A stretch of 64,000 nt of DNA. It comes from Streptomyces umbrinus (lineage in GTDB: Bacteria; Actinomycetota; Actinomycetes; Streptomycetales; Streptomycetaceae). Positions 20,670 to 41,441 of this stretch are shown here, in pieces. A program made the position numbers and the translations under genes. The notes below the pieces were generated by a model, which saw nothing but the letters and a program-made list of their open reading frames with translations, did not search any database and was not told the DNA's origin. The number at the start of each line of letters is the position of its first letter. The stretch's first letter is position 1. Where the stretch lies: contig NZ_JAUSZI010000002.1 of the NCBI RefSeq assembly GCF_030817415.1, positions 7,936,001 through 8,000,000 on the forward strand, in the 5' to 3' direction.

Positions 20670-21055
20670 TCAACCATCGAGGGTGAGCAACGCTGCATTC
20701 CGTACGGTACTTGCAACGTCATTGAAGATCCCCAGGTCAGCGAGCGTCCTCTCGGTGTGAGTGGATGGCTCCCGGCTTTGCCGAAAGGCTTGTAACAGCG
20801 CCGATCGGCCGACAGCAGCAGTTCCTGGTTGTGCCGCCACACGCCGCGCACAGTGTCCAGACGGGCCGGCCCAGGCTTCGTACGTCTGGCCATCGAAGCC
20901 AGCTCCCGTAATTCCTTGACCTGCTGCATTGCCTCTATGGTGCTCAGCTCTGTTGAAGAGCTGTCGAGGCGAGTGACCGGCAGCCGCGGCGCGCACAGTA
21001 TATTCAACGACACCTCCGCGATCCCTACCCACTTCCAACGCCCCATCGGCTTCAT
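20670..21055 (-). pseudogene. unknown protein downstream of fthC, apparently frameshifted
   Basis: ATG 21055 follows TAGGGAG, the ribosome site overlapping the fthC stop, so it reads as the last gene of the flB-fthB-fthC strand. The first part (MKPMGRWKWVGIAEVSLNIL, later IEAMQQVKELRELASMARRT) is open to about 20800. From there the natural-looking continuation (LLQAFRQSREPSTHTERTLA, then DLGIFNDVASTVRNAALLTL) is in another frame, ending TGA at 20670. Unshifted, the first frame ends at 20618. I do not recognise the family. Confidence 0.45.
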
Positions 21056-21065
21056 GTAGAGCTCC

Positions 21066-22055
21066 CTAAGAGGTGTACCTGCCGCTCGTTGCCACCTCCG
21101 TCGACTGCTCCGCAGAAGCACCAGTGTCCTGCTCGACCGGTTCAGCCTTGTTACGTCCCTCGAAGTGCCTTCCGACGATCGCCGCGAGAACGATCAGCGC
21201 ACCACCGATGCCTTGAATGAGTCCGATGCCCTCTCCTGCCGCGAGAACAGCGAAAACCGCCGCGAATAGAGGCTCAGTTGCAAGGATCAATCCCACGCGT
21301 GTGGAGCTGGACAAGCGTGCTGCGCGCAGCTGAACGAAGAAGGCGTACGACGTGCCGAGTACGCCCAGGTAGGCGATGAGTAGCCAGTTCTGTCCACTGA
21401 CAGCACCCGAGGCTTCCCACACCGGTGTGGATGTGAAGGCAGAGGTGATGCTCGCGAGCAGGCACACGACAAGGAACTCGACGAGCGTCAGGTTGGAGAG
21501 CGACTGCTTGCCGGTCACGCCGCTTTGGCGTCCGAACAGAGTGATCTGGGTGGCTCGGACCAGGGCCGCGCCCAGAATGATCAAGTCGCCGGACTGCGGG
21601 TGGAGTCCTCCCTCCAGCACAAGTAGACCGCACCCGACGAGGGCGGTCACCGTGGCCGCGTACACCATGGCTGCCTGCCTGCGTCGGCTGATGACGCGTT
21701 CGAGTACCGGAATGAGGACTACGGAAACAGTGATTAGGAAGCCCGAGTTGGCGGCGGAGGTGTGCTTTACTCCGACCGTCTCCAGTATGAGGATGCCGTA
21801 CAGCAGGGAACCGAAGAACGCTCCCGACACCACCTCTGACCTGCTGATATGAGGAAGGGTGCGCGCTGCGATCAGCACAATGACTGGTAGCGCAGTCATG
21901 AAGCGCAGCGCGAGGAAGCTCGCGGCGGAGACGGACTCTCCCACGTCTTGCATGACGACGTAACTGGAACCCCAGATCACTGCCACGAGTAGTACGGACA
22001 GGTCCAGCGGCACCGTCGCGCGCCGGTCCTCACGGGGTGAATCAGGTAACGCCAT
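21066..22055 (-). CDS. fthC: EamA/DMT-family exporter, probable fluorothreonine exporter FthC
   Basis: 329 residues with ten predicted membrane segments in two EamA repeats (VAVIWGSSYVVMQDVGES at the start of the first; YLGVLGTSYAFFVQLRAARL in the second) and a hydrophilic 35-residue tail. DMT transporters export amino acids and metabolites. In S. cattleya an EamA protein called FthC is linked to fluorothreonine resistance and lies by the fluorothreonyl-tRNA deacylase FthB, as here. ATG 22055 has GGAGAGGG upstream. The gene follows fthB by 130 nt with a large inverted repeat in between, so it may be separately controlled. Confidence 0.82.
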   Translation of the reverse strand: MALPDSPREDRRATVPLDLSVLLVAVIWGSSYVVMQDVGESVSAASFLALRFMTALPVIVLIAARTLPHISRSEVVSGAFFGSLLYGILILETVGVKHTSAANSGFLITVSVVLIPVLERVISRRRQAAMVYAATVTALVGCGLLVLEGGLHPQSGDLIILGAALVRATQITLFGRQSGVTGKQSLSNLTLVEFLVVCLLASITSAFTSTPVWEASGAVSGQNWLLIAYLGVLGTSYAFFVQLRAARLSSSTRVGLILATEPLFAAVFAVLAAGEGIGLIQGIGGALIVLAAIVGRHFEGRNKAEPVEQDTGASAEQSTEVATSGRYTS

Positions 22056-22091
22056 GCGGGCCCTCTCCGGTGGCGGATAGGCGAGTTCACC

Positions 22092-22144
22092 CCCACATCA
22101 TTCAGCAAACCGACAGCGGTGTCGATTATACTGAACGATGTGGG
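22092..22144. promoter_or_regulatory. Nested inverted repeat between fthB and fthC
   Basis: CCCACATCATTCAG (22092-22105) and CTGAACGATGTGGG (22131-22144) are complementary at 13 of 14 positions. Inside is a second stem CGACA-GCGG-TGTCG (22111-22124). It lies 37 nt upstream of the fthC start and could be an operator pair or an mRNA attenuator. Confidence 0.6.
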
Positions 22145-22184
22145 CAGCGATGGCTCCTTTCGGAATCAGTCGTTCGTAGGGGTG

Positions 22185-22664
22185 CTAGCCGGCAGGCGCG
22201 ACGATCGACTCAAGCCGCGGCGACGTGATCGCCGCGTAGTCCTTGATCCTCAACGCCATCGAACGGTCGAGCCTCGCGGCATTGAAGAAGATCTCCTCCT
22301 TCTCCAGCAGCGCCGGATCGACGATGAGCTCCAGGTCGGGGTGGAAGGAGAACGGCAGGATGGTTCCCGCCACACTGCCCGCCAGGCGCTCCGCGGCCTC
22401 GGTGCTGGCGAACGATACATAAGTGCCGCCCAGCAGCTGCTTGATGCCGTTGAGGTTGACGCGTGCGTCACCAGGCACGACGGCCAAAATGTACTTGGTG
22501 ACCTTCTTGCCCAACTTGACCATGACCACGATGCATTTGGCGGCATCGGCCACATCGTTTCCCCGCATGGGACTGACGATCTCCGTCCGCCCCTCGGGTT
22601 CGTGGTCGATCAGCCGGTACTGGGCACCGTGCTGATCAAGTAGGTCGATCAACTTCTCGTACAT
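22185..22664 (-). CDS. fthB: fluorothreonyl-tRNA deacylase-type YbaK/ProX-family protein (FthB)
   Basis: 159 residues of the YbaK/EbsC editing family, which hydrolyses mischarged aminoacyl-tRNAs in trans. Family marks: the KCIVVMVKLGKKVTKYILAV strand pair with its catalytic lysine, the GDARVNLNGIKQLLGG block and the GTILPFSFHPDLELIVDPAL strand. In S. cattleya FthB clears fluorothreonyl-tRNA(Thr) and protects the producer's proteome. Placement between flB and the EamA exporter, beside the transaldolase that makes fluorothreonine, supports the same role. The start ATG 22664 has GGAGAA upstream. Confidence 0.85.
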   Translation of the reverse strand: MYEKLIDLLDQHGAQYRLIDHEPEGRTEIVSPMRGNDVADAAKCIVVMVKLGKKVTKYILAVVPGDARVNLNGIKQLLGGTYVSFASTEAAERLAGSVAGTILPFSFHPDLELIVDPALLEKEEIFFNAARLDRSMALRIKDYAAITSPRLESIVAPAG

Positions 22665-22820: not shown

Positions 22821-23717
22821 TTACAGTACCGGCGCAACGCGGTCACGCAACAGCGTCGGCACGTGGCCCAAAGACGCACCCTGCCATGCTTGACGGTCCG
22901 TCATGATGGCATTGTCCAAAGCGCGATGACAGTTGCACTGCGAGGGATGGGTCTCCTGGGTAAACCCCAAGAGCACTTTCTGAGCAGCGGAGATGTTGGC
23001 CGCCATCACCTCGGCGACGCTCTGCGCGTCCACGGAGTCATGCCGCGGATGCCAGCAGTCGTAGTCCGTGACCAAGGCGAGCCCGACGTAGCAGAGTTCA
23101 GCCTCACGGGCGAGCCTCGCCTCCGGGAGTGCGGTCATGCCGATGACGTCCATCCCCCACGAGCGGTACAACTCGGACTCGGCGCGGGTGGAGAACTGTG
23201 GGCCTTCGATGCAGCAGTACGTTCCCGCTTCGTGAACTGTCGGATGCACTGCGGCCGCGACTCGCTCCAGAACAGGCCGCAAACGGCCGCAGTAGGGGTC
23301 GGCTAGGGAGACATGCGCCACCATGCCGTCTCCGAAGAATGACGCCGGCCGCACACCCCTGGTGCGGTCGATCAACTGGTCGAGGATGACCATGTCCCCC
23401 GGCGTGAAGTCGCCGCGCAGGCTGCCCACCGCGCTGACACTGATCACTTCGCTGACACCCAGTGCCTTGAGGGCGTATATGTTGGCCCGCGCGGGAATTT
23501 TCGACGGCGAAATGACATGGCCCCGTCCGTGGCGCGGCACGAAGGCAATACGTCGGTCGCCGACAGTCCCCAATATGAGCGGCCCGCTCGGATCTCCGTA
23601 AGGTGTCTTTAGCTCGACTTCCGTGATGTCACTCAAACCCTCGAGCGAGTAGAGGCCACTGCCACCGATGATTCCGAGGTCGGCCGAATGAAAGGCCGCT
23701 CCTCCTGTGTCGCGCAT
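22821..23717 (-). CDS. flB: 5'-fluoro-5'-deoxyadenosine phosphorylase FlB
   Basis: 298 residues of the MTA phosphorylase/PNP family: phosphate-site GIIGGSGLYSLEGL, then VPRHGRGHVISPSKIPARAN, the base-site block CCIEGPQFSTRAESELYRSW and MDVIGMTALPEARLAREAEL, and the VTDYDCWH loop. In organofluorine producers FlB converts FDA plus phosphate to 5-fluoro-5-deoxy-D-ribose-1-phosphate and adenine. A roughly 35-residue tail after the core (from THPSQCNCHRA) exceeds MTAP length. It is divergent from flA with a 196-nt shared control region and heads a strand running into fthB and fthC. Start ATG 23717, ribosome site GGAGG. Confidence 0.94.
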   Translation of the reverse strand: MRDTGGAAFHSADLGIIGGSGLYSLEGLSDITEVELKTPYGDPSGPLILGTVGDRRIAFVPRHGRGHVISPSKIPARANIYALKALGVSEVISVSAVGSLRGDFTPGDMVILDQLIDRTRGVRPASFFGDGMVAHVSLADPYCGRLRPVLERVAAAVHPTVHEAGTYCCIEGPQFSTRAESELYRSWGMDVIGMTALPEARLAREAELCYVGLALVTDYDCWHPRHDSVDAQSVAEVMAANISAAQKVLLGFTQETHPSQCNCHRALDNAIMTDRQAWQGASLGHVPTLLRDRVAPVL

Positions 23718-24813
<1,096 letters not shown>

Positions 24814-24927: not shown

Positions 24928-26814
24928 ATGGGATCCGATCCTGAAACCGGTGTGCTGTCCATGCGTGCCATCAGCGAGTTGGTAGCCGCCGAGGAGGAGG
25001 AGCAGTCTCAGGTCCTTCATCTGACCGCGAACGAAACAGTGCTGTCCCCGCTAGCCCAGAGCATCCTCTCCAGCCCACTCTCGGAGCGATACCTGCTGGA
25101 GCATCTGGACATGCGGGAGTCGTCGCCCGCGCGGCTGAACAACCTGCTGCTGCGAGGACTTGACCGCATCAGCCGCATCGAGGAGTCCGCCACCGAGGTC
25201 TGCCGCCAGCTCTTCGGCAGCGAATATGCCGAGTTCCGCTGCCTGTCCGGCCTGCACGCTATGCAGACGACATTCGCCGCGCTCTCGGACCCCGGTGACA
25301 CCGTGATGCGTGTGGCGACGAAAGACGGCGGGCACTTCCTCACGGAATTGATCTGTCGGTCCTTCGGGCGTCAAAGCTCCACATATGTATTCAAGGATGA
25401 CATGTCCTTGGACGTCGACCTGACACGGGAAGTCTTCAAGAACGAGAGCCCGTCCCTCCTGTACGTCGACGCAATGAACTACCTCTTTCCCTTCCCTCTG
25501 GCAGAGGTCAAGGAGATAGCGGGAGACGTACCACTCGTTTTCGATGCCTCCCACACTCTCGGGCTCATCGCTGGCGGCCAGTTCCAGGACCCCCTGAGCG
25601 AAGGCGCGGACATCCTCCAAGCCAACACCCACAAGACGCTGTTCGGACCGCAGAAGGGCATCATCCTCGGCACTGACCGGACTTTGATGGAGAACGTGGG
25701 CTACACTCTCTCCTCCGGAATGGTCAGCAGTCAGCACACCGCGCCGACCATCGCCCTTTTCGCCGCCCTGCACGAAATATGGTACGACGGGCGAGAATAC
25801 GCTGCCCGCGTCGTGGACAACGCCCGATTTCTCGCCGAACAACTTCACGCGCGCGGGGTTTCTGTCCTGGCTGAGAGCCGCGGATTCACCGCGAACCACA
25901 TGTTCTTCGTGGATACGCGCTCGGTGGGCACCGGCCCCATGGTGCTGGACCGGCTGATACGGGCGAACATCTCGGCCAATCGCGTCATCGCCTTCAACCG
26001 CAGCGACACCATACGGTTCGGGGTGCAGGAAGTAACCCGCAGGGGATTCAGGCACAACGAACTGACCACTGTCGCCGACCTCTTGGCATCGCTTATCCTC
26101 GGCAAGGAAGAGCCCGAACGCATCCGGCCCAGGGTCGCCGAATTGGTCGGACAACATCGCGAGATTCACTTCACCGGTGAGGACGCGACGCCGCGGGAGT
26201 CGATCATGCTGCAGGCACCTTCCGTTCAATCCTCGACTTCCACTCCTTCGTCTGTACCGAAACGTCCGCGCTGGATCGGAATCCGACTCTCAACAGCGAC
26301 TCACCGCGTTCCTCGACGCCTTTTCGAGCAGGCTCATGCATTGGGCGTCGTGGCAGGTGCCTTCCCTCACCAAATCGACTCCGCAGGCAACATCAGTTGC
26401 GTCGACGCGGACGGCCGGCAGTACGTGACCGGCAGTGGTGTGTACATCAAAGACCTTGGGACGGGAGACTTCGTCGAGATCAAGGGCCGCGACGGATGGA
26501 CGCTTGAGTGCGAGGGAGACGGCCCGCCGTCCGCCGAGGCGTATCTCCACCGCCTCCTCCGGGAAAGGGTTGGAGCCACCTACATCGTGCACAATCACTG
26601 CATCCTCGACCGGGACCTGGAGGAGGAGGGGAACGTGTTGGTCATCCCGCCCCAGGAGTATGGAAGCGTCGCGCTCGCTGAGGCAGTGGCGGACGCGGCC
26701 TCCCAGAACCAGGTGATGTACGTCCGCCGGCACGGACTTGTGTTCTGGGCGACGGCCTATGAGGAGTGTGCGGAGCTGGTGCACCAGCTGAGCCGACGAG
26801 CCGGGCGTCACTGA
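24928..26814 (+). CDS. 4-fluorothreonine transaldolase (PLP, SHMT-like plus aldolase-like domain)
   Basis: 628 residues, two domains. The N-terminal about 440 residues are a fold-type I PLP enzyme like serine hydroxymethyltransferase: HLTANETVLSPLAQSIL, the FDASHTLGLI Asp-His block, and the Schiff-base lysine Lys236 in QANTHKTLFGPQKG. After a Ser/Thr/Pro linker (about 441-455) comes a class-II aldolase/adducin-like domain with metal-type histidines (TYIVHNHCILDRDLEEEG, YVRRHGLVFWAT). Fluorothreonine transaldolases have this arrangement; they transfer the acetaldehyde part of L-threonine out and combine the glycine quinonoid with fluoroacetaldehyde. It follows flA by 114 nt on the same strand. 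Confidence 0.93.
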   Translation: MGSDPETGVLSMRAISELVAAEEEEQSQVLHLTANETVLSPLAQSILSSPLSERYLLEHLDMRESSPARLNNLLLRGLDRISRIEESATEVCRQLFGSEYAEFRCLSGLHAMQTTFAALSDPGDTVMRVATKDGGHFLTELICRSFGRQSSTYVFKDDMSLDVDLTREVFKNESPSLLYVDAMNYLFPFPLAEVKEIAGDVPLVFDASHTLGLIAGGQFQDPLSEGADILQANTHKTLFGPQKGIILGTDRTLMENVGYTLSSGMVSSQHTAPTIALFAALHEIWYDGREYAARVVDNARFLAEQLHARGVSVLAESRGFTANHMFFVDTRSVGTGPMVLDRLIRANISANRVIAFNRSDTIRFGVQEVTRRGFRHNELTTVADLLASLILGKEEPERIRPRVAELVGQHREIHFTGEDATPRESIMLQAPSVQSSTSTPSSVPKRPRWIGIRLSTATHRVPRRLFEQAHALGVVAGAFPHQIDSAGNISCVDADGRQYVTGSGVYIKDLGTGDFVEIKGRDGWTLECEGDGPPSAEAYLHRLLRERVGATYIVHNHCILDRDLEEEGNVLVIPPQEYGSVALAEAVADAASQNQVMYVRRHGLVFWATAYEECAELVHQLSRRAGRH

Positions 26815-26922: not shown

Positions 26923-27498
26923 ATGGACAGTGAGACACCGGCAGTGGACCCACCCAAGGGTGTAGGTGCGACGGTCGGCACGCAGGTGCGCCGCTTGCGT
27001 ACGTTCCGTGACCTGTCACTGACCGAGCTCTCCCGGCTGTCCGGCGTCAGTCGGGCGACCCTTTCCGGTATCGAGTCCGGACGGGGAAACCCGACCATCG
27101 AGACAATCTCGGCTATCGCCGTCGCGCTCCGTCTGCCCTTGGGTGACCTCCTGGTCGACCTGGCTCCGCAGAGGCCGGTGCTGCGTCGGGGCACTGCCTC
27201 GCCCGAGAAGAGCAAGCAGGAACTGCTGGAGCGGATCGGTGCCGGCGGACTCAGCGAGATCTGGCGTGTACGCGTCACCCAGGTCGGATGGCGCATCGAC
27301 AGTCCCGCCCACAGCAAGGGCACTATTGAGCGCATTACCGTGCTGCACGGCGTACTGCGCGTGGGCCCCGTCGACGCCCCGGTGGAACTCAGCCAGGGCG
27401 ATTTCGTCACGTTCTCGGCCGATGTCGATCACTTCTATGAAGCTGTGCAGCCCGACGTGGATGCAGTCCTCGTCATGACCTATCCGGCAGCCCCGTAG
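26923..27498 (+). CDS. XRE-family regulator with C-terminal cupin domain
   Basis: 191 residues. Helix-turn-helix of the XRE type at about 20-75 (VRRLRTFRDLSLTELSRLSG, VSRATLSGIESGRGNPTIET), then a cupin fold (RITVLHGVLRVGPVDAPVEL, LSQGDFVTFSADVDHFYEAV). Such proteins repress or activate on binding a small ligand in the cupin. ATG 26923 has AGGAG upstream. It is the third gene behind flA and the transaldolase, so it may sense a pathway intermediate; its 3' end overlaps the convergent LuxR gene by 19 nt. Confidence 0.88.
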   Translation: MDSETPAVDPPKGVGATVGTQVRRLRTFRDLSLTELSRLSGVSRATLSGIESGRGNPTIETISAIAVALRLPLGDLLVDLAPQRPVLRRGTASPEKSKQELLERIGAGGLSEIWRVRVTQVGWRIDSPAHSKGTIERITVLHGVLRVGPVDAPVELSQGDFVTFSADVDHFYEAVQPDVDAVLVMTYPAAP

Positions 27499-28205
27499 GC
27501 CGAGTTCGCTGTAGGGCCAATCATCGCAGCCACTGCCGGAATCAAGCCGAGCTCCCCTGCCTTGCGGACAGCGTCAGTACGGCACGATGCGTCCAACTTG
27601 GCGTAGACGTTGGACAGATGGCGTTTCACCGTACCTTCCGCAATCACGAGCAGATGAGCAATCTGCGAGTTGCGTAGTCCGCGAGCGACCAAGGCGACGA
27701 TCTCCTGTTCCCGCGCGGTGAGCGGCGAAGGCCCGTGCCCTTGCAAGCCGTCGAGTGTCCGCTGAGTCAGCGAGAGCACGATCCGATCGCTGTGCTGCAC
27801 GACGCCACGTACAGCCCCGGCCAACTCTTGGGGGGTGGTATGTCGGGGCAGAGCCGCTTGCACGCCGACCATCAGAACGCGTTTGACGGCGAACGGCTCC
27901 TCACGGGCCAGCATGACAACTATCCGTGCCCATGGAGCAGCTGCCCGCAGAGCTGACAAGTCCTCCAGGGCATCCGCCTCGACGACGTCCATGCCGACGA
28001 GTATGACCACGGGGCGCAGGGAACCGACCGCTGTTGTCATTTCCTTCAGCGTCGCCGCCTGGGCTATCACGGCGAAGGCGTCTTCGGCTGTGAGACAGTG
28101 CAACAGACCTGTTCGGAAGATGGGGTTCTCGTCGACAACGCCGATCGCGATGCGGGGAGAGCTGATCGGTTCCGACACCACCATCGGATCGCGAAGCACC
28201 GTCAC
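27480..28205 (-). CDS. LuxR/NarL-type regulator with degenerate receiver domain
   Basis: 241 residues: receiver-like domain (about 17-140) and LuxR helix-turn-helix (SPLTAREQEIVALVARGL, NSQIAHLLVIAEGTVKRHLS). The phosphoacceptor aspartate is missing: the normal VLMDxRMP position reads VVILVGMD, with Gly71 at the Asp site. The acidic pair (VVDENP) is kept; the conserved Lys block reads ALPRHTT. Phosphorylation-independent control is therefore likely. The start GTG overlaps the antiporter stop (GTGA), so the two are coupled. A LuxR-type gene beside the antiporter also occurs in the S. cattleya fl cluster (FlG/FlH, from memory). Confidence 0.87.
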   Translation of the reverse strand: MTVLRDPMVVSEPISSPRIAIGVVDENPIFRTGLLHCLTAEDAFAVIAQAATLKEMTTAVGSLRPVVILVGMDVVEADALEDLSALRAAAPWARIVVMLAREEPFAVKRVLMVGVQAALPRHTTPQELAGAVRGVVQHSDRIVLSLTQRTLDGLQGHGPSPLTAREQEIVALVARGLRNSQIAHLLVIAEGTVKRHLSNVYAKLDASCRTDAVRKAGELGLIPAVAAMIGPTANSAYGAAG

Positions 28206-29569
28206 TTCGTCGCCGCCTTCGGATTCTCGTCTTCGTGTGCCGCCCTCTGCCTTGGCCCGCTAGGCGACGCGTCGAAATCGGGGTCGTACGTAACGAGGGC
28301 TCCTCCACGGGAAACGACCCTCGCGAGCCAGATGCCCGCCATTTGCGAGGTCACGATCGACAGGACCACGAGCGCGGTAAAGAAACTCTCGCTGATGATG
28401 CCGGCGCCGAACGTGGTCGAGGCGAGTATGATTCCTGGACCGCCGCGGGCGTTCATAGCTGCCGCGATATTGGTTGCCGCAGAAGGGGACTGTCCAGCGA
28501 CCCGGGCGCCTACCCAGACACTTGCGAACTTGGCGAGGCAGGCAAGCCCCAGGAACCACAGGAAGAACACGACGTCGAAGTGACGTATCAGATCCAGCTT
28601 CAGTCCTACAACGGCAAAGTACACGGGGATGAAGAAGGCCAGGGAAATATTTCGTAGTGTTTCACGGGCCTGATCGGCTCCCGAGGAGCCTGCCTCGCAG
28701 ATCCCTGCAGTGAGCGCACCGAATATGGGGTCTATGCCGAGGCCAGCGCACATCAGACACAGCGAGAAAATGAAGATCATCAAGAAGGCGGTAGGACTGC
28801 GCTGTGCCAGCACATTCCACCGCATTCGGGCAAGCGTTGAGAAGATCCGTTGCCCGTATCGAATGTGAATGGCGAGGAACAGCATCGGTGCCACGGTGAA
28901 GTACAGAGCCCCCCACGCCAGCGGAACCTCTCCCATCAGGGTCCCAAGCCCGTATGTCTCCCCGGAACGCGCCCCGGCGACTCCCATCACGATCGCGAGG
29001 ACCACATAGAGCACCACGTCTTCAAGCACCGCGACCGTGAGCACTATGCGTGCGAAACTGGACCTCAGTATTCCGAGATCCAGCATGATTCGAGAGATCA
29101 CGGGGATGCTCGTCAGGGCGATGGCGAGGCCGAAGACCAAGGCCAGGGTGGTCTGTGAACCGTTCGCCCCTGACAGGTCCGCGAGCCCCAAGGAGTACGC
29201 CACCGCCAGCCCGGCGGCAAAGGGAACCACGAGGCCCGAGACGGAGACCGAGACGATCGTCCGCTTCTCCGCTTTGGTGGCGCGACCGTGAAGCTCTGTA
29301 CCGGTCAGATAGACCAAGAGCAGTAGGCCGAGCTGGTAGATGACACCGAGCGCCGAAGCCGCAGGCCCTTCTTCCGGCACGATCTCGTTCTGGAATTGTG
29401 GCCACACGGCGCCGAGGACCGTCGGCCCCAGCAGGAGCCCCCCGACGATCTCGCCGATGACCGGCGGCTGCTTGATCAGCTTGAAGACGTAGGCGGTGCT
29501 GTGTGCGACGATCACCAACAAGATCAGTGAAGTCAAGACTTGCGCAACTTCGCCAGCACTCAGTGACAT
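28202..29569 (-). CDS. flH: CPA2-type cation/proton antiporter (FlH-like)
   Basis: 455 residues, twelve or so membrane segments, Na+/H+ exchanger family (KefB/GerN type): FKLIKQPPVIGEIVGGLLLG near the N-terminus is the hallmark, with LGLLLLVYLTGTEL and NARGGPGIILASTTFGAGII later. ATG 29569 has GGAGG upstream. Known fl clusters carry an antiporter called FlH whose function is unproven. The family exchanges Na+ or K+ for H+; in a producer exposed to fluoride it might balance pH or ions. Divergent from flI, coupled to the LuxR gene. Confidence 0.85.
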   Translation of the reverse strand: MSLSAGEVAQVLTSLILLVIVAHSTAYVFKLIKQPPVIGEIVGGLLLGPTVLGAVWPQFQNEIVPEEGPAASALGVIYQLGLLLLVYLTGTELHGRATKAEKRTIVSVSVSGLVVPFAAGLAVAYSLGLADLSGANGSQTTLALVFGLAIALTSIPVISRIMLDLGILRSSFARIVLTVAVLEDVVLYVVLAIVMGVAGARSGETYGLGTLMGEVPLAWGALYFTVAPMLFLAIHIRYGQRIFSTLARMRWNVLAQRSPTAFLMIFIFSLCLMCAGLGIDPIFGALTAGICEAGSSGADQARETLRNISLAFFIPVYFAVVGLKLDLIRHFDVVFFLWFLGLACLAKFASVWVGARVAGQSPSAATNIAAAMNARGGPGIILASTTFGAGIISESFFTALVVLSIVTSQMAGIWLARVVSRGGALVTYDPDFDASPSGPRQRAAHEDENPKAATK

Positions 29570-29709
29570 TGCGTACCTCCGAGACGGCTGTCGACAACCC
29601 TTCGACTTGCTATCCGAGGTCAACCCGAACCGTCTACGAGATCTCAGGAATTCAATCTCCAAGACGCGTAAATGCGTCGGCTGGCTTCATCCGAACGATG
29701 GAGAAAATG

Positions 29710-33449: not shown

Positions 33450-34510
33450 CCTCCGCGGAATCCGGCCGCGCACTCAGCGCCGGTATCGGCCCCGTGATCG
33501 GGTGGAGCGGGGATGTGATCGTGGCTCTCGACCAGACCGCCCTGCCGCGTCAGACGAACCTTGTACGACTGACAACAGTCGATCAGCTCGTCGAAGCGAT
33601 CCGCAGACTCGTCGTGAGAGGTGCCCCGGTACTCGGAGCAGCAGGAGCACTGGGGGTGGCGCTGGCGGTGCGTGAGGCAGACCGATCCAGCTGGACACCC
33701 TCTGAACTCACCTACCAAGTCGACAGGATCCGCGATGCTCGCCCTACTGCAGCAGACTTGGCGGTGGGGGTCTCCGTCGTGCGGCCCTTGATACCGCAGG
33801 GGGCCAAGGTAGTGGAAGCCGCGGCCCGCTCCTATGTGGACCGGATCGTAGGGTCTAACCGTCGCCTTGCGACACGCGGAGCCGACTACCTGGCCGATCT
33901 GTTTCCTGGCAAGGTGCTCCGTCTGCACACGCACTGCAATACGGGCGCTCTGGCAGGCGTGGAGTGGGGCACGGCCTTGGGCGTGGTCCAGGCATTGCAT
34001 GCGCGAAAGCTCGTCAGTCAGGTGATCGTCGACGAGACCCGCCCACTGCTCCAGGGGGCTCGACTTACTTGCTGGGAACTGGAACGACTGGGCATCGATC
34101 ATCGTCTTATCTGCGATGGTGCCGGTCCATACGTACTGGCGCGCGGTGATGTGGATGCTGTTGTTGTTGGGGCCGATCGCATTGCGGCCAACGGGGACGT
34201 CGCGAACAAGATAGGCACCTACGCCCTCGCTCTCGGAGCTCGTCATGCTGGTGTGCCGTTCGTCGTTGCAGCACCTGAGTCAACGCTCGATGTGACGATC
34301 CCAGACGGTTCGGCTATCGCCGTTGAGCAGCGTGCAGAGGCCGAGGTCACCCAGGTGCAAGGAATCCTCCTGGCACCTGAGAGTACCCGTGCCCTCAACT
34401 ACGCCTTTGACATCACTCCCGCCGAGTTCGTCAGCGCGGTGGTCACGGACCGTCGGCTGATCGTTGTTCCGTCCGGTCCTGGCGCGATCGCAAAGCAACG
34501 GACTGCCTGA
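33446..34510 (+). CDS. mtnA: methylthioribose-1-phosphate isomerase family; probable 5-fluoro-5-deoxyribose-1-phosphate isomerase
   Basis: 354 residues of the MtnA/eIF2B-like family: [19 protein letters not shown], catalytic Cys164 in [16 protein letters not shown], catalytic Asp244 in [19 protein letters not shown]. MtnA isomerises methylthioribose-1-phosphate to the ribulose form. In fluorometabolism the same reaction on 5-fluoro-5-deoxyribose-1-phosphate, the FlB product, is needed next, so here that substrate is likely. Last gene of the flI-apt-DUF190-metK-mtnA run, ending at a shared terminator. Confidence 0.92.
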
Positions 34511-34520
34511 TCGAGTCGCT

Positions 34521-35210: not shown

Positions 35211-35836
35211 GGTGTCTCCTGCTCATTCAGGTTCGCGCTGCTGGTACTTGATGGAGTGGCACGACCAGACGTGACGGGTCGGCGCGCGTAGACGCCGTGG
35301 CGATACTGAGTCACTGAGGACTGGGAAGTCATGAGCGATCGTCGTATTCAGTCGCCGCGGACAGGCGCCGGGGCTGGCTGAATAGGAGTCGCGTCGCTGC
35401 CGGCGGCGCCGGGCAGGGATGAGGGCTTTTGCGGCACGATCAATCATCGTCATCCTGGCTGTCCCATATCCATGGAAAAATCACCAGGGACCGTCAGCGG
35501 CATGTGCCGCGGTTTCGGTGAGCCCCATCACCGGCTTGCCGTTCAACCAGTGTGAACGTGTCGGGATGTGAGTGAAACAGGGACTTCGGCCGTCACTTAA
35601 CGCCACAATCGTTCAACTTGGCGTCAGTGGTCTGTCTTCGTGCAGCAACACTCAACGGGCATCTGCGCCTAACGCCACGGGCGCACCGTGGCAAACGTGC
35701 AGCCCGACAGTTGCGGCAGTAACGGGTGTGAGCCTTGTTGCGTGCGACGTCAGTCACAGCAGGAGCTCTATGCCATGAGCGCGACCTGCACGCAGAGCCG
35801 AATTTGCCACACAAATAGTCACCTGCTGTTCGCGCG
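35211..35836. other. Gene-poor stretch between luxR and ISAs1
   Basis: 626 nt with only short inconsistent frames. The proximal part probably holds the promoter of the luxR gene. I recognise nothing further; the repeated TAACGCCAC near 35597 and 35670 is short. Confidence 0.4.
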
Positions 35837-37150
35837 CAGGGCTTGATCAAGTTCCGTAGGTGTCCGGATCGTTGGTGATGCCCAGGATGGGGAGTGCTCG
35901 TTGGGGTTCGTCGCGGATCGCCCGGGTGGTCTTGGCGATGTTGTCGGCTCCGAGGGTTTTCAGCACGCCGATGGCGAGGTTGCGGAGGGTCGCCATGGCC
36001 CGTGGTGCGGTTCCGGCGTGGACGGTGGAGGCGTCCTCGGCGAAGGTGACATCCCTGATGTGGTGCGAGGAGTTCTCCACTCCCCAGTGCCCGCGAATCG
36101 CGGTGGCCAGTTCGGAGGGGCGGGCTTGGTGGGCGTCGAGGCTTGTGACGGCGTAGACACTCTCACGGGTCTCGCGCTTGCCGGTCTGCTTGCGGCGGCG
36201 GTGGACGCGGATGGCCAGGCGGGCGTGGGGAAAGGCGATCCCGCCGAGTTCGTCCGCGACGGCGCAGGTCTTGATCGAGCGGGACTCGCGCCTGCCGTGC
36301 CCGGAGGCGGAGGCGGTGTGCTGGACGGCGATGTCCCGCCACGGCAGGGCCGCGAGCTGGCTGTGGGCGGTCGGCTGGTTGGTCTTGATCACGGCGATGT
36401 AGTGGGCCTTCTTGGCCTCGACCAGCCAGGAGATGTTCGTCTTGACCGAGTGCAGGGCGTCGAAGGTGACGACGGTGCCGGCCAGGTCCAGCGGTGCCAG
36501 GAGCGGTTGGAAGTGTGTGGTTTCGTTCGTCTTCGCGCCGACCTCCACCTGGGCGAGGGTCACGACGGTGCCGTGAGTGACCGCGGAGAGCAGATGCCGG
36601 CGCGTCGCGGTGAGACGGGCTGATCCCTTGAGTGCTTTGCCGTCGACAGCGATCACGCGCGGCCGCCCGGACGCGGACGGCGACGGCGCCTGGTCGGGCT
36701 CGGTGGCAGCGCGATGCCGGTCGGCCAGGTAGGCGCCCACCGCCCGGTCCAGGGCGTCACCGTCAACAGCCCCCAGCACACGGCCGATCGTGGCCGGCGA
36801 CGGAGTGCGCCGCCATCTGAGCAGGTGGCGCCGGATCCCGATGACTGTCAGCAGTGCGTTCGAAGCACGCTGGCCCCACTCGGCGAGTTCGTCGATGCTC
36901 CTCGCTCCCGAGACGACCGCGCAGGCACACACCAGCAGGATCGATGTCAGCGAGTACCACCGGCCCCGCCGGGAGCGCGGGTCGGGCACCGAGTCGAAGT
37001 AGAGGCGCAGGTCAGCGACCCGACCGGCATCCAACGGACCCAGCTTCACCAACACGGCGGGAATGGGAGAAGATACAGCGGCAGGCACGGGCCACCTCAT
37101 GATCATCGGGCTTAGACACCACAATGATCACGAAGCCCGTGCCTGCCCTG
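35837..37150 (-). mobile_element. ISAs1-family insertion sequence
   Basis: About 1.3 kb. The outer ends share CAGGGC (35837 on the plus strand; complement GCCCTG ending 37150). Imperfect inner parts (GATCAAG and GATCAT) follow. No convincing target duplication was found. It separates flA-luxR from flK-crcB. Confidence 0.7.
35847..37106 (-). CDS. ISAs1-family transposase
   Basis: About 419 residues. N-terminal DDE_Tnp_1-associated region: FDSVPDPRSRRGRWYSLTSI, then ARSIDELAEWGQRASNALL. Catalytic domain: VIAVDGKALKGSARLT (Asp), TFDALHSVKTNISWLVEAKK (Asp), HWGVENSSHHIRDVTFAED (Glu). All look intact, so the element may be active. The start is uncertain (ATG 37106 or 37100; no good ribosome site). 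Confidence 0.9.
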   Translation of the reverse strand: MIMRWPVPAAVSSPIPAVLVKLGPLDAGRVADLRLYFDSVPDPRSRRGRWYSLTSILLVCACAVVSGARSIDELAEWGQRASNALLTVIGIRRHLLRWRRTPSPATIGRVLGAVDGDALDRAVGAYLADRHRAATEPDQAPSPSASGRPRVIAVDGKALKGSARLTATRRHLLSAVTHGTVVTLAQVEVGAKTNETTHFQPLLAPLDLAGTVVTFDALHSVKTNISWLVEAKKAHYIAVIKTNQPTAHSQLAALPWRDIAVQHTASASGHGRRESRSIKTCAVADELGGIAFPHARLAIRVHRRRKQTGKRETRESVYAVTSLDAHQARPSELATAIRGHWGVENSSHHIRDVTFAEDASTVHAGTAPRAMATLRNLAIGVLKTLGADNIAKTTRAIRDEPQRALPILGITNDPDTYGT

Positions 37151-37366
37151 TTATGCACCCCAACCGGTCACAGCCCGACCAGCCGCACGCCCCCGGAACT
37201 TGCAACCGCCCTGGTTCGCGCGCCCTGGCTCAAATCCACGGAGGAGCATCCCGGTCTTCCCGCTGAGATCCACGCATGCTGCGCCAGTCCACGGCACTGA
37301 GGTTCCCCCGGGATGCGGAGGAAGTTGACAGCAGGTCAGATGGGACTCATGAGAGGACCTGTGACC

Positions 37367-37675
37367 ATGGCTGCACCCCGGAAATACTCGCTCGAGTTGC
37401 GTGAGCGTGCGGTACGTATGTATCGCACCGCTGAGCCGAAGCCCCAGATCAAGAAGCTGGCCGTCGACCTCGGCGTGCACCCGGAGGCCCTGCGTGGCTG
37501 GATCCGCCAGGCCGAGGCGGACGCCGGCGAGCGCGACGACCGTCTCACCACCGACGAACGCGCCGAACTCACGGCCCTGCGCAAGGAGAACACCCAGCTC
37601 AAGCGAGCCAACGACGTCCTGCGGACGGCCTCGGCGTTTTTCGCGGCGCAACTCGACCCGACCCGGCCCAGGTGA
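37367..37675 (+). CDS. IS3 transposase OrfA
   Basis: 102 residues: helix-turn-helix (KYSLELRERAVRMYRTAEPK, LGVHPEALRGWIRQAEADAG) followed by a leucine-zipper-like stretch (LTALRKENTQLKRANDVLR). The stop overlaps the OrfB start (GTGA); IS3 elements usually make an OrfAB fusion by -1 frameshifting near this point. Confidence 0.93.
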   Translation: MAAPRKYSLELRERAVRMYRTAEPKPQIKKLAVDLGVHPEALRGWIRQAEADAGERDDRLTTDERAELTALRKENTQLKRANDVLRTASAFFAAQLDPTRPR

Positions 37676-38589
37676 CGGCGCTCGTCGACGAGCATCCCCG
37701 CCTGGGAGTCGAGTGCGTACTTCGGGAACTCCACATCCCCTCCTCCACCTACTACCGCTGGCGCCGCGCAGAGAAGGAGCCCTGCGAACGGCGGCGTCGC
37801 GACGTCGAGCTGACCGAGCGGATCAAGGAGATCCACGCCGACTCCACCGGCGTCTACGGCTCTCCGCGCGTGCACGCCGTGCTGAAACGCGAGGGCACCC
37901 CGGTGGGCCGCAAACGGGTCGAGCGCCTGATGCGTGAGACCGACCTCGCGGGTGTGAGCCCGCGACGGAAGGGCTTCACGCGCCGGGACCCGAAGGCCAC
38001 CCTGGCCCCGGACCTGGTCAACAGAGACTTCACCGCACCGGCGCCGAACCGGTTGTGGGTCACCGACCTCACGATGATCTCCACCGGCGAGGGGCCGTTG
38101 TGGCTGTCCGCGATCCGCGACGCGTTCTCCCGCCGGGTCGTCGCCTGGGAGACCTCCGCCCGCGCGGACGCCGACCTGGTCCTGACCACGCTGGAGTACG
38201 CGCTCGCGTCCCGCGAGGTCGAGCCGGGCAAGCTCATTCACCACGCCGACCACGGCTGTCAATATACGTCCATCAAGCTCACAACTCGGCTCATGCGGGC
38301 GGGAGTTGAGGCGTCCATGGGTTCGGTCGGGGACTCGTACGACAACGCGCTCGCGGAGAACCTCTGGATGCTCATCAAAACCGAGGGCCTCCGCGGCCGC
38401 ACCTTCACCACGAGGGCCGAGGTGAATCTCGCGCTCTTCGAGTACGTCGACGGCTTCTATAACTCCCGCCGCATCCAGGAACGGCTCGGCTTCCTCAGCC
38501 CGATCGAGTTCGAGGAGAAGTACTACGCCGAGCAGGCGACGGCCGAACCAACGAATCTGAACACCCGTCACCCCCTGCTGACGAGCTGA
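37672..38589 (+). CDS. IS3 transposase OrfB (DDE integrase)
   Basis: 305 residues: HTH_21-type STGVYGSPRVHAVLKREG, then the DDE core with RLWVTDLTMISTGEGPLWL (Asp), HHADHGCQYTS (Asp) and SVGDSYDNALAENLWMLIKT (Glu), and the IS3 C-terminal FYNSRRIQERLGFLSPIEFE. All three catalytic residues are present. Confidence 0.94.
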   Translation: MTALVDEHPRLGVECVLRELHIPSSTYYRWRRAEKEPCERRRRDVELTERIKEIHADSTGVYGSPRVHAVLKREGTPVGRKRVERLMRETDLAGVSPRRKGFTRRDPKATLAPDLVNRDFTAPAPNRLWVTDLTMISTGEGPLWLSAIRDAFSRRVVAWETSARADADLVLTTLEYALASREVEPGKLIHHADHGCQYTSIKLTTRLMRAGVEASMGSVGDSYDNALAENLWMLIKTEGLRGRTFTTRAEVNLALFEYVDGFYNSRRIQERLGFLSPIEFEEKYYAEQATAEPTNLNTRHPLLTS

Positions 38590-38620
38590 TCAGCGGCTCC
38601 CGCATGACGGGGGAACCTCA

Positions 38621-39107: not shown

Positions 39108-39437
39108 CTATTCGCAGGAACGGAAGACCTCGACGTCATCGAGGACGACTACGCATTGAGCGATGAGAGCCTCTTCCCTCGACAGGAAATCGTGGATGCG
39201 GTCGGATGCGTCAATGACGGTGATCATGATCGGCAGGCCGTCGGCGAAAGACTCCAGGCGGTCGGTGTGCAAGGTCGAGCCTCTACCGAACCCTTCGGTG
39301 CCGCGCGATGCGGTGGCGCCAGCCAACCCAAGTGCCAGAGCGCGCTCAAGTATCTCTCGGTGCAGCAGCCGTCCGTTCCAGACGCTGCCCTCGGAGAGGA
39401 ACACGGTGGCCCGGACCGCATGGCCGCTCAGCGTCAT
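39108..39437 (-). CDS. DUF190 (PII-like) protein, copy 2
   Basis: 109 residues; ATVFLSEGSVWNGRLLHREI, GLAGATASRGTEGFGRGSTL and LPIMITVIDASDRIHDFL are the DUF190 marks. It follows flK on the same strand by 26 nt, so both are probably cotranscribed. Function of the family is unproven; the link to fluoride comes from its frequent neighbourhood with crcB. The RGTEGFGRG loop is the best preserved of the three copies. Confidence 0.85.
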   Translation of the reverse strand: MTLSGHAVRATVFLSEGSVWNGRLLHREILERALALGLAGATASRGTEGFGRGSTLHTDRLESFADGLPIMITVIDASDRIHDFLSREEALIAQCVVVLDDVEVFRSCE

Positions 39438-39463
39438 CTGATGCTCCAGGGGTGAGCAGTGGT

Positions 39464-39913
39464 TCAGTTGACCGGATCGGTGCTGGCTTCGGCAAACGAC
39501 TGCCGCAGCTTCTTCTCAACGCCTGCGTTGAACCGCTGGAGATCGATCAATGAACGCTCGTGCGTCCCGGCGCCGATCTCGTGAACGCCGTCGTGAGCTG
39601 TCACTTGCCACTTGGTCCGACGGCCCTCCGACGCCAGGAGCTCGACAGCCACCGACACGGTGAGGCCGGGTGGGGTCGCGGCTGAATGTGTCACACAGAT
39701 CGAGGTTCCGACGCTGCCCTCGCCTTCGCCCAGGTATGGCTGCATGGCGCGGACGCACGCCCACTCCATCAAGCCCACCATGAAGCCCGTCGCAAAGACC
39801 TCGGGAAAGGTGGAGAACTCCGGCGACTCCTGATAGATGTGGCGAACAGTCTTGTCCGGTGGCACCTGGTAGTGATGAGTGAACGTGTCGCCGATCAGCA
39901 GACCGTCCTTCAT
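39464..39913 (-). CDS. flK: fluoroacetyl-CoA thioesterase FlK
   Basis: 149 residues of the hot-dog fold. Numbering coincides with S. cattleya FlK: Phe33 and Phe36 of the hydrophobic lid (SPEFSTFPEVF), Thr42 (ATGFMVG), Glu50 (GLMEWACVRA), Gly69 and His76 (CVTHSAATPPG). FlK hydrolyses fluoroacetyl-CoA and spares acetyl-CoA, preventing lethal entry of fluoroacetate into the TCA cycle; this is the self-resistance gene. ATG 39913 has GGGAGGGAAG upstream. Separated from the core fl genes by two IS elements but clearly part of the locus. Confidence 0.96.
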   Translation of the reverse strand: MKDGLLIGDTFTHHYQVPPDKTVRHIYQESPEFSTFPEVFATGFMVGLMEWACVRAMQPYLGEGEGSVGTSICVTHSAATPPGLTVSVAVELLASEGRRTKWQVTAHDGVHEIGAGTHERSLIDLQRFNAGVEKKLRQSFAEASTDPVN

Positions 39914-40267
39914 TGCTTCCCTCCCTGGGAGCTAGGTTCTTAGTCGAGTCCTAGGGAATCGCAGAGCACGAAGCATGTCGACCGTGACAAGCCGGGCAGG
40001 CGTACTTTTCACCGACACATCCGGACAACGTTCGTTCACCCCGACGACGCAACGTGCGAGTGAGGGCCCCTATTTACGCCCGCCCAAGTGTTAGGTCCGG
40101 CGTGAGTCAGGGCTGCAACGATCACCAGTGAGAGTGAAACGCGGTTCATGCCGACGGGCAATGGGCTTCGTCCTCGTTGTCGTACAACTCTCAGGGATCC
40201 CTGTTCGCCGGCACCGGGAAGCCCGTGGAGCTGGAGTTTCAATGGGTCAGACAATGCGTTGATCAAC
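39914..40267. other. Non-coding stretch between flK and crcB
   Basis: 354 nt with no frame I would call. It must hold the flK promoter at its left end. No fluoride-riboswitch consensus was recognised. Confidence 0.4.
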
Positions 40268-40642
40268 TCAGGACCAGAGTGCTTCAGCCAACGCGCTCCC
40301 GATGAATACCGCGCCTAGACCAGCGACCAGGGTGACGGCGATGTTGGCGGTGGCGAAAAACTTGGCACCGGTTTCGGCCAGTCGCAGGGTTTCGTAGGAG
40401 AAGGTTGAGTAAGTAGTCAGTGCTCCGCAGAGACCGGTACCGATCAGTAACTGCACCGATTGAGATGCGGCACCGTAGGTGACCGCGCCCGTGAGCGTTC
40501 CGAGGATGAAGCAGCCGACGATGTTGACGGTGAAGGTGCCCCAGGGGAAGACGATGTCGTGCCGGGCCTGGATGGCCCGGTCGGTCAGGTAGCGCAAAGG
40601 CGCTCCGACCGCGGCGCCCACGATGACGAGCAGCCAGTTCAC
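40268..40642 (-). CDS. crcB: fluoride channel subunit CrcB/Fluc, copy 2
   Basis: 124 residues, four membrane segments. VGAAVGAPLRYLTDRAIQAR, then FPWGTFTVNIVGCFILGTLT and IGTGLCGALTTYSTFSYETL are the Fluc marks, including the Asn of the pore and the STFSYE phenylalanine/threonine track. CrcB exports fluoride passively as a dual-topology dimer. GTG 40642 overlaps the DUF190 stop (GTGA). Last gene of crcB-DUF190-crcB. Confidence 0.94.
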   Translation of the reverse strand: MNWLLVIVGAAVGAPLRYLTDRAIQARHDIVFPWGTFTVNIVGCFILGTLTGAVTYGAASQSVQLLIGTGLCGALTTYSTFSYETLRLAETGAKFFATANIAVTLVAGLGAVFIGSALAEALWS

Positions 40643-40953
40643 CGATTGTCCTTTGCGTCGCAACCAACGTAGCGGATCACTTCGCAGTCATCGAGGGCGG
40701 CGGCCTCCTTGACGCTGTAGCGACCTCGGCCGTCGCTGACGACGATGGCAACCGGCAGCCCCTCGCTCAGCGGCAGCGGGCATACGGTGCGGACGTGTGA
40801 GGGGGATCCGAAGCCTGTGACGCAGGGAAAGGGATTGGCATCGGCCAGACCCGCCTCATACGTGCTGGTCACGATCTCGATGTGAAGGAGCCGGTGGCGG
40901 AACGCGTCAAGCTCCCCGACGAAGATTGCTACCTGCAAAGCGTTGTCGTGCAT
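40639..40953 (-). CDS. DUF190 (PII-like) protein, copy 3
   Basis: 104 residues. VAIFVGELDAFRHRLLHIEI, GLADANPFPCVTGFGSPSHV and LPVAIVVSDGRGRYSVKE follow the DUF190 pattern but with a changed loop (TGFGSPSHV where others read GFGRG). It lies between two crcB genes, 5 nt after the first and overlapping the second, so all three are coupled. A PII-like sensor between two channel subunits suggests control of fluoride efflux; this is inference. Confidence 0.83.
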   Translation of the reverse strand: MHDNALQVAIFVGELDAFRHRLLHIEIVTSTYEAGLADANPFPCVTGFGSPSHVRTVCPLPLSEGLPVAIVVSDGRGRYSVKEAAALDDCEVIRYVGCDAKDNR

Positions 40954-40958
40954 CCGTG

Positions 40959-41441
40959 TCACCTCTGCCTCCAGGAGACCAGTCGGCGCGTGGCGGCGGC
41001 CGCGCACCAGACCGCGACAAAGGCCGCCAGAACCGTGGCCGCGAGGTAGGCCAGCCCAATGGGGGACTGGCCGTCCTGGACGAGACGCTGAATGTCCACG
41101 GCGTAGGTGGAAAAGGTCGTGAAGCCGCCAAGCACGCCAGTGCCGAAAAAGGGTCTCACTAGCCAGTGGGGGCTCCACGCGTCGTTGATGATCACCAAGA
41201 AGGCGCCGATGACAGCGCAACCGGTCGCGTTCACTGCGAAAGTCGTCCAGGGAAATGTGTCCTGTGCGGTGGGCCAGGCGAGCGAGGCCCCGTAGCGGGC
41301 AGCTGAACCCAAGGCGCCGCCGACGGCGACCGCTGTAGTCACGGCGATCCGTCTGCGGGCCCGTTCGCGCCGTTGGGAAGTCACCGACAGGAAAAAGCCG
41401 GAATCGGTGGGCGCGGTCATCTGATCACGAGAACTGGTCAT
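40959..41441 (-). CDS. crcB: fluoride channel subunit CrcB/Fluc, copy 1
   Basis: 160 residues with an N-terminal extension of about 30 and four membrane segments. [40 protein letters not shown] and [20 protein letters not shown] contain the conserved Asn and the FTTFSTY pore motif. The two crcB proteins differ strongly, which fits a heterodimeric Fluc pair. The start is ATG 41441 (AGGAAG upstream); ATG 41420 is possible. First gene of the operon. Confidence 0.94.

What the first reader, a model, noticed from the sequence alone, without database searches (positions are those of the whole stretch)
20670..41441. A nearly complete organofluorine biosynthesis and self-resistance locus
flA, flB, fluorothreonine transaldolase, mtnA-type isomerase, flI, flH, flK, fthB, fthC, two crcB and three regulators lie within 21 kb. 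FlA and FlK keep all known active-site residues at the same numbers as the S. cattleya proteins. Enzymatic C-F bond formation is very rare, so the strain should be a fluoroacetate and 4-fluorothreonine producer.
Basis: partly seen in the sequence, partly recalled or inferred. Interest (0 to 1): 0.97.

Follow-up and report, generated by a model that had tools for sequence, protein, structure and literature searches.

The report
Fluoride-sensing switch in organofluorine gene cluster
A Streptomyces chromosome carries a gene cluster that likely makes the rare fluorine-containing compounds fluoroacetate and 4-fluorothreonine, and inside it lie two sequences that resemble the fluoride-sensing riboswitch, through which fluoride itself is predicted to switch on a cluster regulator and a fluoride exporter.

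Summary
The window (Streptomyces, 12.4 Mb genome) holds a fluorinase (85% identical to S. cattleya FlA, catalytic residues kept), FlB, a two-domain fluorothreonine transaldolase, MtnA-type isomerase, FlI, FlH, FlK, FthB, FthC, two crcB and three regulators. No aldolase (outside the transaldolase) or aldehyde dehydrogenase was found in the window, and nothing was measured, so production stays a prediction.

The new part is regulatory. A fluoride-riboswitch-type aptamer (Rfam 33.1 bits, 0.9 under the cut-off) lies upstream of an atypical LuxR-type regulator; Streptomyces iconiensis has it at the same place, 45/50 identical while the rest of the leader is not conserved. A variant aptamer, which Rfam scores as noise, lies just upstream of crcB2-DUF190-crcB1; related leaders precede crcB in other genomes, with a long-range A-U pair replaced by G-C. 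Genome-wide only these two score strongly with a model built partly from them. How the first would control the regulator is unresolved; 3 of 5 Streptomyces clusters with this regulator lack it.

The parts
15711..16130 (-). second FlK-family thioesterase (FlK2)
   Evidence: PF22636 102 bits; with flK the only two FlK-family matches in the genome at E<=0.001; 51% identical relative in the Streptosporangiales fluorinase contig
16142..16759 (-). TetR-type regulator
   Evidence: PF00440
16913..17665 (+). amidohydrolase (PF04909), fth-group neighbour
   Evidence: 61-63% identical gene beside fthC in SAJ15, G058 and S. cattleya pSCAT
21066..22055 (-). fthC, EamA-type exporter; TTA at codon 3
   Evidence: PF00892; 73% to S. 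cattleya; TTA
22185..22664 (-). fthB, fluorothreonyl-tRNA deacylase type
   Evidence: PF04073; 83% to S. cattleya
22821..23780 (-). flB, 5'-FDA phosphorylase type
   Evidence: PF01048; 71-78% in the Streptomyces clusters
23914..24813 (+). flA, fluorinase
   Evidence: 255/299 identical to 1rqp
24928..26814 (+). fluorothreonine transaldolase, SHMT + class II aldolase domains (possible starts 24856, 24928, 24952)
   Evidence: PF00464 + PF00596; 70% to S. cattleya FTase
26923..27498 (+). flF-type HTH regulator with a weak cupin match
   Evidence: PF01381
27480..28205 (-). LuxR1, NarL-type regulator with Gly at the phospho-acceptor position
28202..29662 (-). flH, Na+/H+ antiporter type (an ATG near 29569 is a likely start)
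   Evidence: PF00999
29823..31286 (+). flI, S-adenosylhomocysteine hydrolase
   Evidence: PF05221
31330..31872 (+). adenine phosphoribosyltransferase type
   Evidence: PF00156; relatives in 11 of 13 fluorinase loci
31865..32224 (+). DUF190 protein a
   Evidence: PF02641
32256..33449 (+). second SAM synthetase (MetK); TTA at codon 169
   Evidence: 65% to the other genome copy; MetK near fl genes in 6 of 13 loci
33446..34510 (+). MtnA-type sugar-phosphate isomerase (5-FDRP isomerase candidate)
   Evidence: PF01008
34539..35210 (-). LuxR2 regulator, Glu in place of phospho-acceptor Asp; TTA at codon 6
35478..35541 (-). fluoride-riboswitch-type aptamer about 268 nt upstream of LuxR2
   Evidence: RF01734 33.1 bits; counterpart in S. 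iconiensis
35847..37049 (-). insertion sequence transposase (DDE_Tnp_1)
37313..38589 (+). IS3-type insertion sequence
39108..39437 (-). flJ-type DUF190 protein b
   Evidence: next to flK also in S. iconiensis
39464..39913 (-). flK, fluoroacetyl-CoA thioesterase
40268..40642 (-). crcB1 fluoride channel type; TTA at codon 65
40639..40953 (-). DUF190 protein c
40959..41477 (-). crcB2 fluoride channel type (alternative start 41441)
41493..41563 (-). variant fluoride aptamer (G-C for the long-range A-U) upstream of crcB2
   Evidence: Rfam only 15.9 bits; custom model and untrained crcB leaders

Best explanation
This stretch is an organofluorine cluster that encodes a fluorinase, a fluorothreonine transaldolase and self-protection genes, likely makes fluoroacetate and 4-fluorothreonine, and carries two fluoride-aptamer-like sequences through which fluoride is predicted to switch on the LuxR2 regulator and the crcB export operon. 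Inferred enzymology (from characterised homologues): MetK makes SAM; FlA joins fluoride to SAM; FlB releases adenine, which APRT salvages; the MtnA-type isomerase makes the ribulose phosphate; an aldolase encoded elsewhere gives fluoroacetaldehyde, which a dehydrogenase encoded elsewhere oxidises or the transaldolase converts to 4-fluorothreonine. FlI removes SAH, FthB clears mischarged tRNA, FthC exports the amino acid, FlK hydrolyses fluoroacetyl-CoA. Inferred regulation: LuxR2 lacks the phospho-acceptor Asp, so its level rather than phosphorylation would carry the signal; fluoride binding to its leader would raise that level, and the crcB2 leader would free its putative ribosome-binding site when the pseudoknot forms.
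For: Cluster. LuxR2 aptamer: Rfam 33.1 bits, E 1.1e-6 for the whole genome; S. iconiensis has one at 33.7 bits on the same strand about 250 nt upstream of its LuxR2; the aptamer core is 45/50 identical with all five changes inside the P3 loop, while the rest of the leader aligns at 145/228, within the shuffled range (mean 0.62, max 0.69). Rare: 16 of 384 genus genomes have any Rfam match at E<=0.001 (G-C variants would escape this count). The same aptamer subtype precedes inorganic pyrophosphatase (PF00719) in L062, L063, L067, L068, L069, and in L066 by tblastn at 91%. crcB2 aptamer: model R1 (trained on 5 sequences including it) finds untrained leaders at 46-61 bits directly upstream of crcB2 homologues (58-62% identical) in L059, L064, L067, L071. 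Covariation on 34 rows: 48 two-sided cells against 13.9 shuffled, 0/500; long-range pair A-U 22, G-C 9, A-C 2, C-C 1. In the whole genome R1 gives both copies 69.4 bits and the next match 25.0 (both copies are training rows). LuxR2 has Glu at the phospho-acceptor position in 5 of 5 orthologues aligned.
Against: No aldolase (apart from the FTase domain) or aldehyde dehydrogenase found in the window; no product measured. The LuxR2 aptamer is absent in 3 of 5 Streptomyces clusters that have LuxR2, two of which are close relatives. Its score is under Rfam's cut-off. LuxR2's start is about 268 nt downstream, no terminator with a U-run was seen after the aptamer, the frame and hairpin after it are not shared in full with S. 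iconiensis, and folding energies are not unusual. Rfam alone gives the crcB2 copy 15.9 bits, E 0.45, a level at which 13 of 14 control genomes also ring. Two of the five covariation measures do not stand out: pairs with a two-sided change 7 against 5.9 (124/500) and further pair types 20 against 18.3 (114/500); P3 forms in only 78.7% of cells. LuxR2's targets are unknown.
Confidence: 0.72

Rival explanations
1. A latent or decaying organofluorine cluster: genes intact but not expressed, or the strain lacks the missing enzymes, so no fluorometabolite is made.
For: Insertion sequences lie inside the right part and a cas6e gene and transposase piece lie inside the left part; aldolase and dehydrogenase not found in the window; N. 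brasiliensis has such a cluster and no product was seen (PMC3999930).
Against: All 22 locus genes checked are open with catalytic residues kept in FlA, FlK and FTase; flK, reported absent in N. brasiliensis, is present; four class II aldolase-family genes lie elsewhere in the genome.
Confidence: 0.2
2. The LuxR2 aptamer is a relic of a pyrophosphatase (ppa) leader, left when a fluoride-resistance gene was lost, and does not control LuxR2.
For: The nearest aptamers by sequence precede ppa in six other Streptomyces loci: L062, L063, L067, L068, L069 (Pfam) and L066 (tblastn); no obvious expression platform for LuxR2; absent in 3 of 5 clusters.
Against: In two diverged species the aptamer sits at the same place with changes confined to the P3 loop while the surrounding leader shows no similarity beyond chance, which a relic would not be expected to show.
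Confidence: 0.2
3. The crcB2 leader element is an unrelated RNA or a chance match, not a fluoride aptamer.
For: Rfam score 15.9 bits, E 0.45; it departs at a conserved long-range pair and its P3 has a mismatch.
Against: Position directly before crcB, pseudoknot and linchpin pairs kept, same element in untrained crcB leaders, two-sided A-U to G-C change, and in 5 of 5 Streptomyces crcB2 leaders folded the aptamer's 3' end pairs with a putative ribosome-binding site.
Confidence: 0.08

Closest known systems
fl cluster of Streptomyces (Streptantibioticus) cattleya, with the fth genes on its megaplasmid pSCAT
   Same: FTase, FthB, FthC and the amidohydrolase compared directly; FlA and FlK compared through solved structures; flB, flH, flI, flG, flF known from papers
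   Different: here both halves lie together with crcB2-DUF190-crcB1, MetK and APRT. The S. cattleya chromosome was not found in the samples searched, so its leaders could not be compared
nob cluster of Nocardia brasiliensis (PMC3999930) and the Streptomyces sp. MA37 cluster (PMC7162832)
   Same: FTase near the fluorinase (both), isomerase and APRT in the cluster (nob)
   Different: nob lacks FlK; no MetK or crcB match in L007 (10 kb each side), and its best R1 match is weak, 17.6 bits inside the FTase gene
Streptomyces iconiensis fluorinase locus (L003, L023, L095)
   Same: gene order from fthC to LuxR2, and the aptamer upstream of LuxR2
   Different: no MetK or crcB match in the stretch held; flK-flJ run the other way
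fluoride riboswitch (RF01734, crcB RNA motif)
   Same: P2, P3, H-type pseudoknot, linchpin A-U; class found upstream of crcB and ppa
   Different: one copy precedes a pathway regulator; [quoted passage not shown] both score under Rfam's cut-off

Membership tests
fluorinase (5'-FDA synthase, FlA) | gapless match to S. cattleya FlA including the loop that sets fluorinases apart from the chlorinase (loop recalled) | tested here: met
fluorinase (5'-FDA synthase, FlA) | Asp16, Thr80, Ser158 (named in PMC7541441) kept | tested here: met
fluorinase (5'-FDA synthase, FlA) | makes 5'-FDA from SAM and fluoride | not testable with these tools
   needs an enzyme assay
fluorothreonine transaldolase | SHMT plus class II aldolase domains with the K, N, H, H, E, H residues of FTaseMA | tested here: met
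   residues from PMC7162832
FlK fluoroacetyl-CoA thioesterase | T42, E50, H76, G69 (recalled) in a gapless alignment | tested here: met
organofluorine (fl-type) cluster | flA with flB, flI, flH and regulators | tested here: met
organofluorine (fl-type) cluster, not a defining feature | aldolase and fluoroacetaldehyde dehydrogenase encoded in the cluster (remote or unknown in S. cattleya and N. brasiliensis, PMC3999930) | tested here: not met
   55 window ORFs scanned; class II aldolase-family genes elsewhere in the genome, assignment open
fluoride riboswitch, LuxR2 copy | Rfam gathering score 34 | tested here: not met
   33.1 bits
fluoride riboswitch, LuxR2 copy | P2, P3, pseudoknot, reversed Watson-Crick A-U and linchpin A-U | tested here: met
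   long-range pairs as described in PMC10687018 (passages)
fluoride riboswitch, crcB2 copy | Rfam gathering score 34 | tested here: not met
   15.9 bits
[quoted passage not shown]
   G-C instead, a two-sided change shared by 9 of 34 rows
fluoride riboswitch, both copies | binds fluoride and changes expression | not testable with these tools
   needs in-line probing and reporters

The most novel reading that the evidence does not exclude
Fluoride itself gates organofluorine biosynthesis through RNA: an aptamer borrowed from the fluoride-stress (pyrophosphatase) leader class sits on the mRNA of a phosphorylation-blind regulator, and a G-C variant aptamer that current Rfam models miss controls the exporter operon in the same cluster. 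Substrate supply, pathway activation and fluoride export would be wired to one ion sensor.
Probability: 0.5. Interest if true: 0.82.

Novelty: new variant of a known kind. Interest (0 to 1): 0.63.

Why it matters
Biological C-F bond formation is very rare, and how producers sense fluoride, a toxic substrate that the fluorinase needs at millimolar level (Km about 2 mM, PMC11139923 passage), is to my knowledge not settled. A fluoride aptamer on a pathway regulator gives a directly testable answer. The G-C variant would widen the known fluoride riboswitch class and reveal crcB leaders that the current Rfam model overlooks. The MetK-APRT-FlB-FlI set, seen near fluorinase genes in several actinobacterial genera, points to dedicated SAM and adenine recycling.

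Tried and rejected
Rfam at the gathering threshold found no riboswitch in the window; the E-value mode showed it. R1 found no convincing aptamer near LuxR2 in the SAJ15, G058 and S. morookaense clusters, nor in L004-L011 within the stretches held: the best match there is 17.6 bits, inside the FTase gene of L007. I looked for a terminator or a conserved leader ORF between the LuxR2 aptamer and LuxR2: no U-run was seen, and the 77-79-codon frame of the window has stops in S. iconiensis, so no expression platform is claimed. A single origin for cluster-linked MetK was not supported: the window's copy is a long branch of its own, while those of L004, L005, L011 group with second copies of G782 and G784. 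Aldolase candidates elsewhere could not be ranked without a reference. S. cattleya's chromosome was not met in the genus, family or phylum samples, and no FlA match exists in the plasmid collection. Papers: Walker 2012 and Baker 2012 are not held. [quoted passage not shown] cattleya', citing Walker 2012, so riboswitches in that producer may already be in print; the arrangement here was not seen in the listings of searches or in the passages read of PMC11139923, PMC7541441 and PMC10687018.

Pfam was run on 55 window ORFs (one ORF, 40639 (-), twice at different lengths); short ORFs of the outer window were not scanned. In one search the fold of the L025 leader was cut at a wrong place and was not counted. 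In one search the automatic frame choice for L066 and for the crcB2 leader of L067 took a later or wrong frame; both were settled by tblastn.
Full report
Setting. The window is G000:C2:7936001-8000000 of a 12.4 Mb, three-contig genome. The genus is taken as Streptomyces: one same-genus genome, G218, has flA on a contig of 165328 bases, the length of the S. morookaense contig of L002. In 2-kb steps G+C is 66-74% in the outer window, 61-69% between 15 and 42 kb and mostly 62-65% from 20 to 36 kb, beside three tRNA genes at 14.2-14.6 kb. This fits an acquired island, although no ends were mapped.

Gene content. FlA matches S. cattleya FlA (1rqp) without gaps, 255/299 identical, with all 19 active-site positions checked identical and the fluorinase loop present. 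FlK matches S. cattleya FlK without gaps over 135 residues. The transaldolase has the SHMT and class II aldolase domains and the residues discussed for FTaseMA. On S. cattleya pSCAT the FTase, fthB, fthC and amidohydrolase genes lie together (70, 83, 73 and 63% identical to the window's); in the window the amidohydrolase is parted from fthC by a transposase piece and a cas6e gene.

(i) SAM synthetase 32256-33449, one of two in the genome, 65% identical to the other, and APRT 31330-31872. I compared 13 fluorinase loci: L001-L011, G058 and the window, with about 10 kb each side of flA where the contig allowed (L009 and L010 are cut short) and longer stretches for L002-L006, L008 and G058. Counts by tblastn at E<=1e-6 (1e-8 for the extensions): MetK near fl genes on the flA contig in 6 (window, L004, L005, L011, and about 23 kb away in L006 and L008), APRT in 11 (not L002 or L010), FTase in 7, fthC in 8, crcB in the window alone. 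MetK, APRT, FlB and FlI together would return the adenine and clear the SAH; this is inference. APRT and SAH hydrolase were already named as SAM recycling in the nob cluster (PMC3999930). (ii) A second FlK-family gene at 15711-16130; it and flK are the only two matches in the genome. (iii) Three DUF190 genes. (iv) TTA codons in fthC, MetK, LuxR2 and crcB1, which suggests bldA dependence (recalled).

Aptamer 1. Rfam in E-value mode places a fluoride aptamer at 35541..35478(-), 33.1 bits against a cut-off of 34. Searched over the whole genome it has E 1.1e-6; the best match of S. iconiensis, 33.7 bits, lies about 250 nt upstream of its own LuxR2 on the same strand. The two aptamer cores agree in 45 of 50 positions, all differences inside the P3 loop, while the rest of the leader shows no similarity beyond shuffled sequence. 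Only 16 of 384 genus genomes have an Rfam match at E<=0.001, and 4 of 14 control genomes. At E<=1, 13 of 14 control genomes ring, so weak Rfam matches carry no weight by themselves.

Aptamer 2. At 41563..41493(-), just before crcB2, Rfam gives 15.9 bits. Five aptamers (both window copies, S. iconiensis LuxR2, and the crcB leaders of Actinopolyspora mzabensis and the Streptosporangiales genome) were aligned and made into model R1. R1 then scored 46-61 bits on untrained leaders of crcB2 homologues in L059, L064, L067 and L071 and 47 bits on two crcB1-like leaders in L063 and L064; of these, the three in L063 and L064 were missed by Rfam at E<=0.01. On the 34-row alignment the structure with pseudoknot and long-range pairs forms in 92.9% of cells against 84.8% shuffled and at most 50.6% when slid, with 48 two-sided cells against 13.9; two other measures (pairs with a two-sided change, further pair types) do not exceed the shuffles (124/500 and 114/500), and P3 forms in 78.7% of cells. 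The alignment was fitted to P2 and P3 and includes the five training rows, but the pseudoknot and the long-range pairs were not in the model. The reversed Watson-Crick pair known to form on fluoride binding (PMC10687018, passages) is A-U in 22 rows, G-C in 9, A-C in 2 and C-C in 1; without the training rows 20, 6, 2 and 1. Rows share descent, so these are not independent events.

Expression platforms. In 5 of 5 Streptomyces crcB2 leaders folded, window included, the aptamer's 3' end pairs with the AGUAGG of a putative ribosome-binding site; in 5 of 5 ppa leaders folded it pairs with CCAGG, which overlaps AGGAGG or a near form. This predicts a translational ON switch. For LuxR2 no such platform was found: a hairpin that would compete with the pseudoknot follows the aptamer in the window, but the start codon is about 268 nt away and S. 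iconiensis keeps at most a short version. Output at LuxR2 is therefore the weakest step.

Why LuxR2. Its receiver domain has Glu at the phospho-acceptor position in 5 of 5 orthologues and LuxR1 has Gly there in 5 of 5, so neither should answer to a kinase in the usual way; control of amount by fluoride would supply the missing input. This is inference; its binding sites were not sought. LuxR2 orthologues at 64% identity or more are in 5 of the 13 loci, and 2 of these 5 have the aptamer.

What is known. Fluorinase clusters of this kind are established (PMC3999930, section 6 part 1 and passages; PMC7162832 and PMC9234330, passages; PMC5947533, first third; PMC7408626, passages). A review states that S. 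cattleya uses extensive riboswitch regulation, citing a paper not held here. Searches for fluoride riboswitch with fluorinase, Streptomyces or fluorothreonine (listings) did not show an aptamer on a cluster regulator, but absence from an open-licence library is weak evidence.

Verdict. A real, apparently intact organofluorine cluster, new member of a known kind; its two fluoride-aptamer-like leaders, one on a regulator and one a G-C variant on crcB, are the new variant. Production and switching remain to be shown.

Noticed in passing
L062-L064, L066 (non-fluorinase Streptomyces genomes): Fluoride islands with up to about six fluoride aptamers within 10 kb, before inorganic pyrophosphatase, crcB, NUDIX, histidine-phosphatase and ABC-F-type genes, often in opposite directions.
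   Followed up: partly
L059:1501, L062:11328, L064:10530, L067:9985, L070:9886, L071:9999: A recurring protein of about 160-190 aa follows a fluoride aptamer; it is a diverged member of the inorganic pyrophosphatase family (PF00719, 29-44 bits in the 4 of 6 scanned), distinct from the ppa nearby.
   Followed up: partly
window 19026-19694 and 19354-20673: Cas6e-type gene (CRISPR_assoc, 153.7 bits) and a weak, sub-cut-off Cas3_HD match inside the island.
   Followed up: no
window 38938-38965 and 38998-39025: Two 28-nt repeats 60 nt apart, 79% alike, which look like remains of a CRISPR array next to flJ.
   Followed up: no
window 56784-58046: A CLC-type channel gene (PF00654) 15 kb from the crcB operon; whether it is of the fluoride-exporting kind was not tested.
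   Followed up: no
L098:2879-3280: The Streptosporangiales fluorinase contig has an FlK-family gene 51% identical to the window's second FlK, beside APRT and MetK.
   Followed up: no
window 14176-14571: Two tRNA-Asn and one tRNA-Met gene at the left edge of the low-G+C region, a possible island insertion point.
   Followed up: no
G782 (Actinoallomurus) and G784 (Streptosporangiales) fluorinase contigs: Second SAM synthetases with flB, flI and APRT lie about 23 kb from flA; neither FTase nor fthB/fthC was found in the stretches held, so the products may differ.
   Followed up: partly
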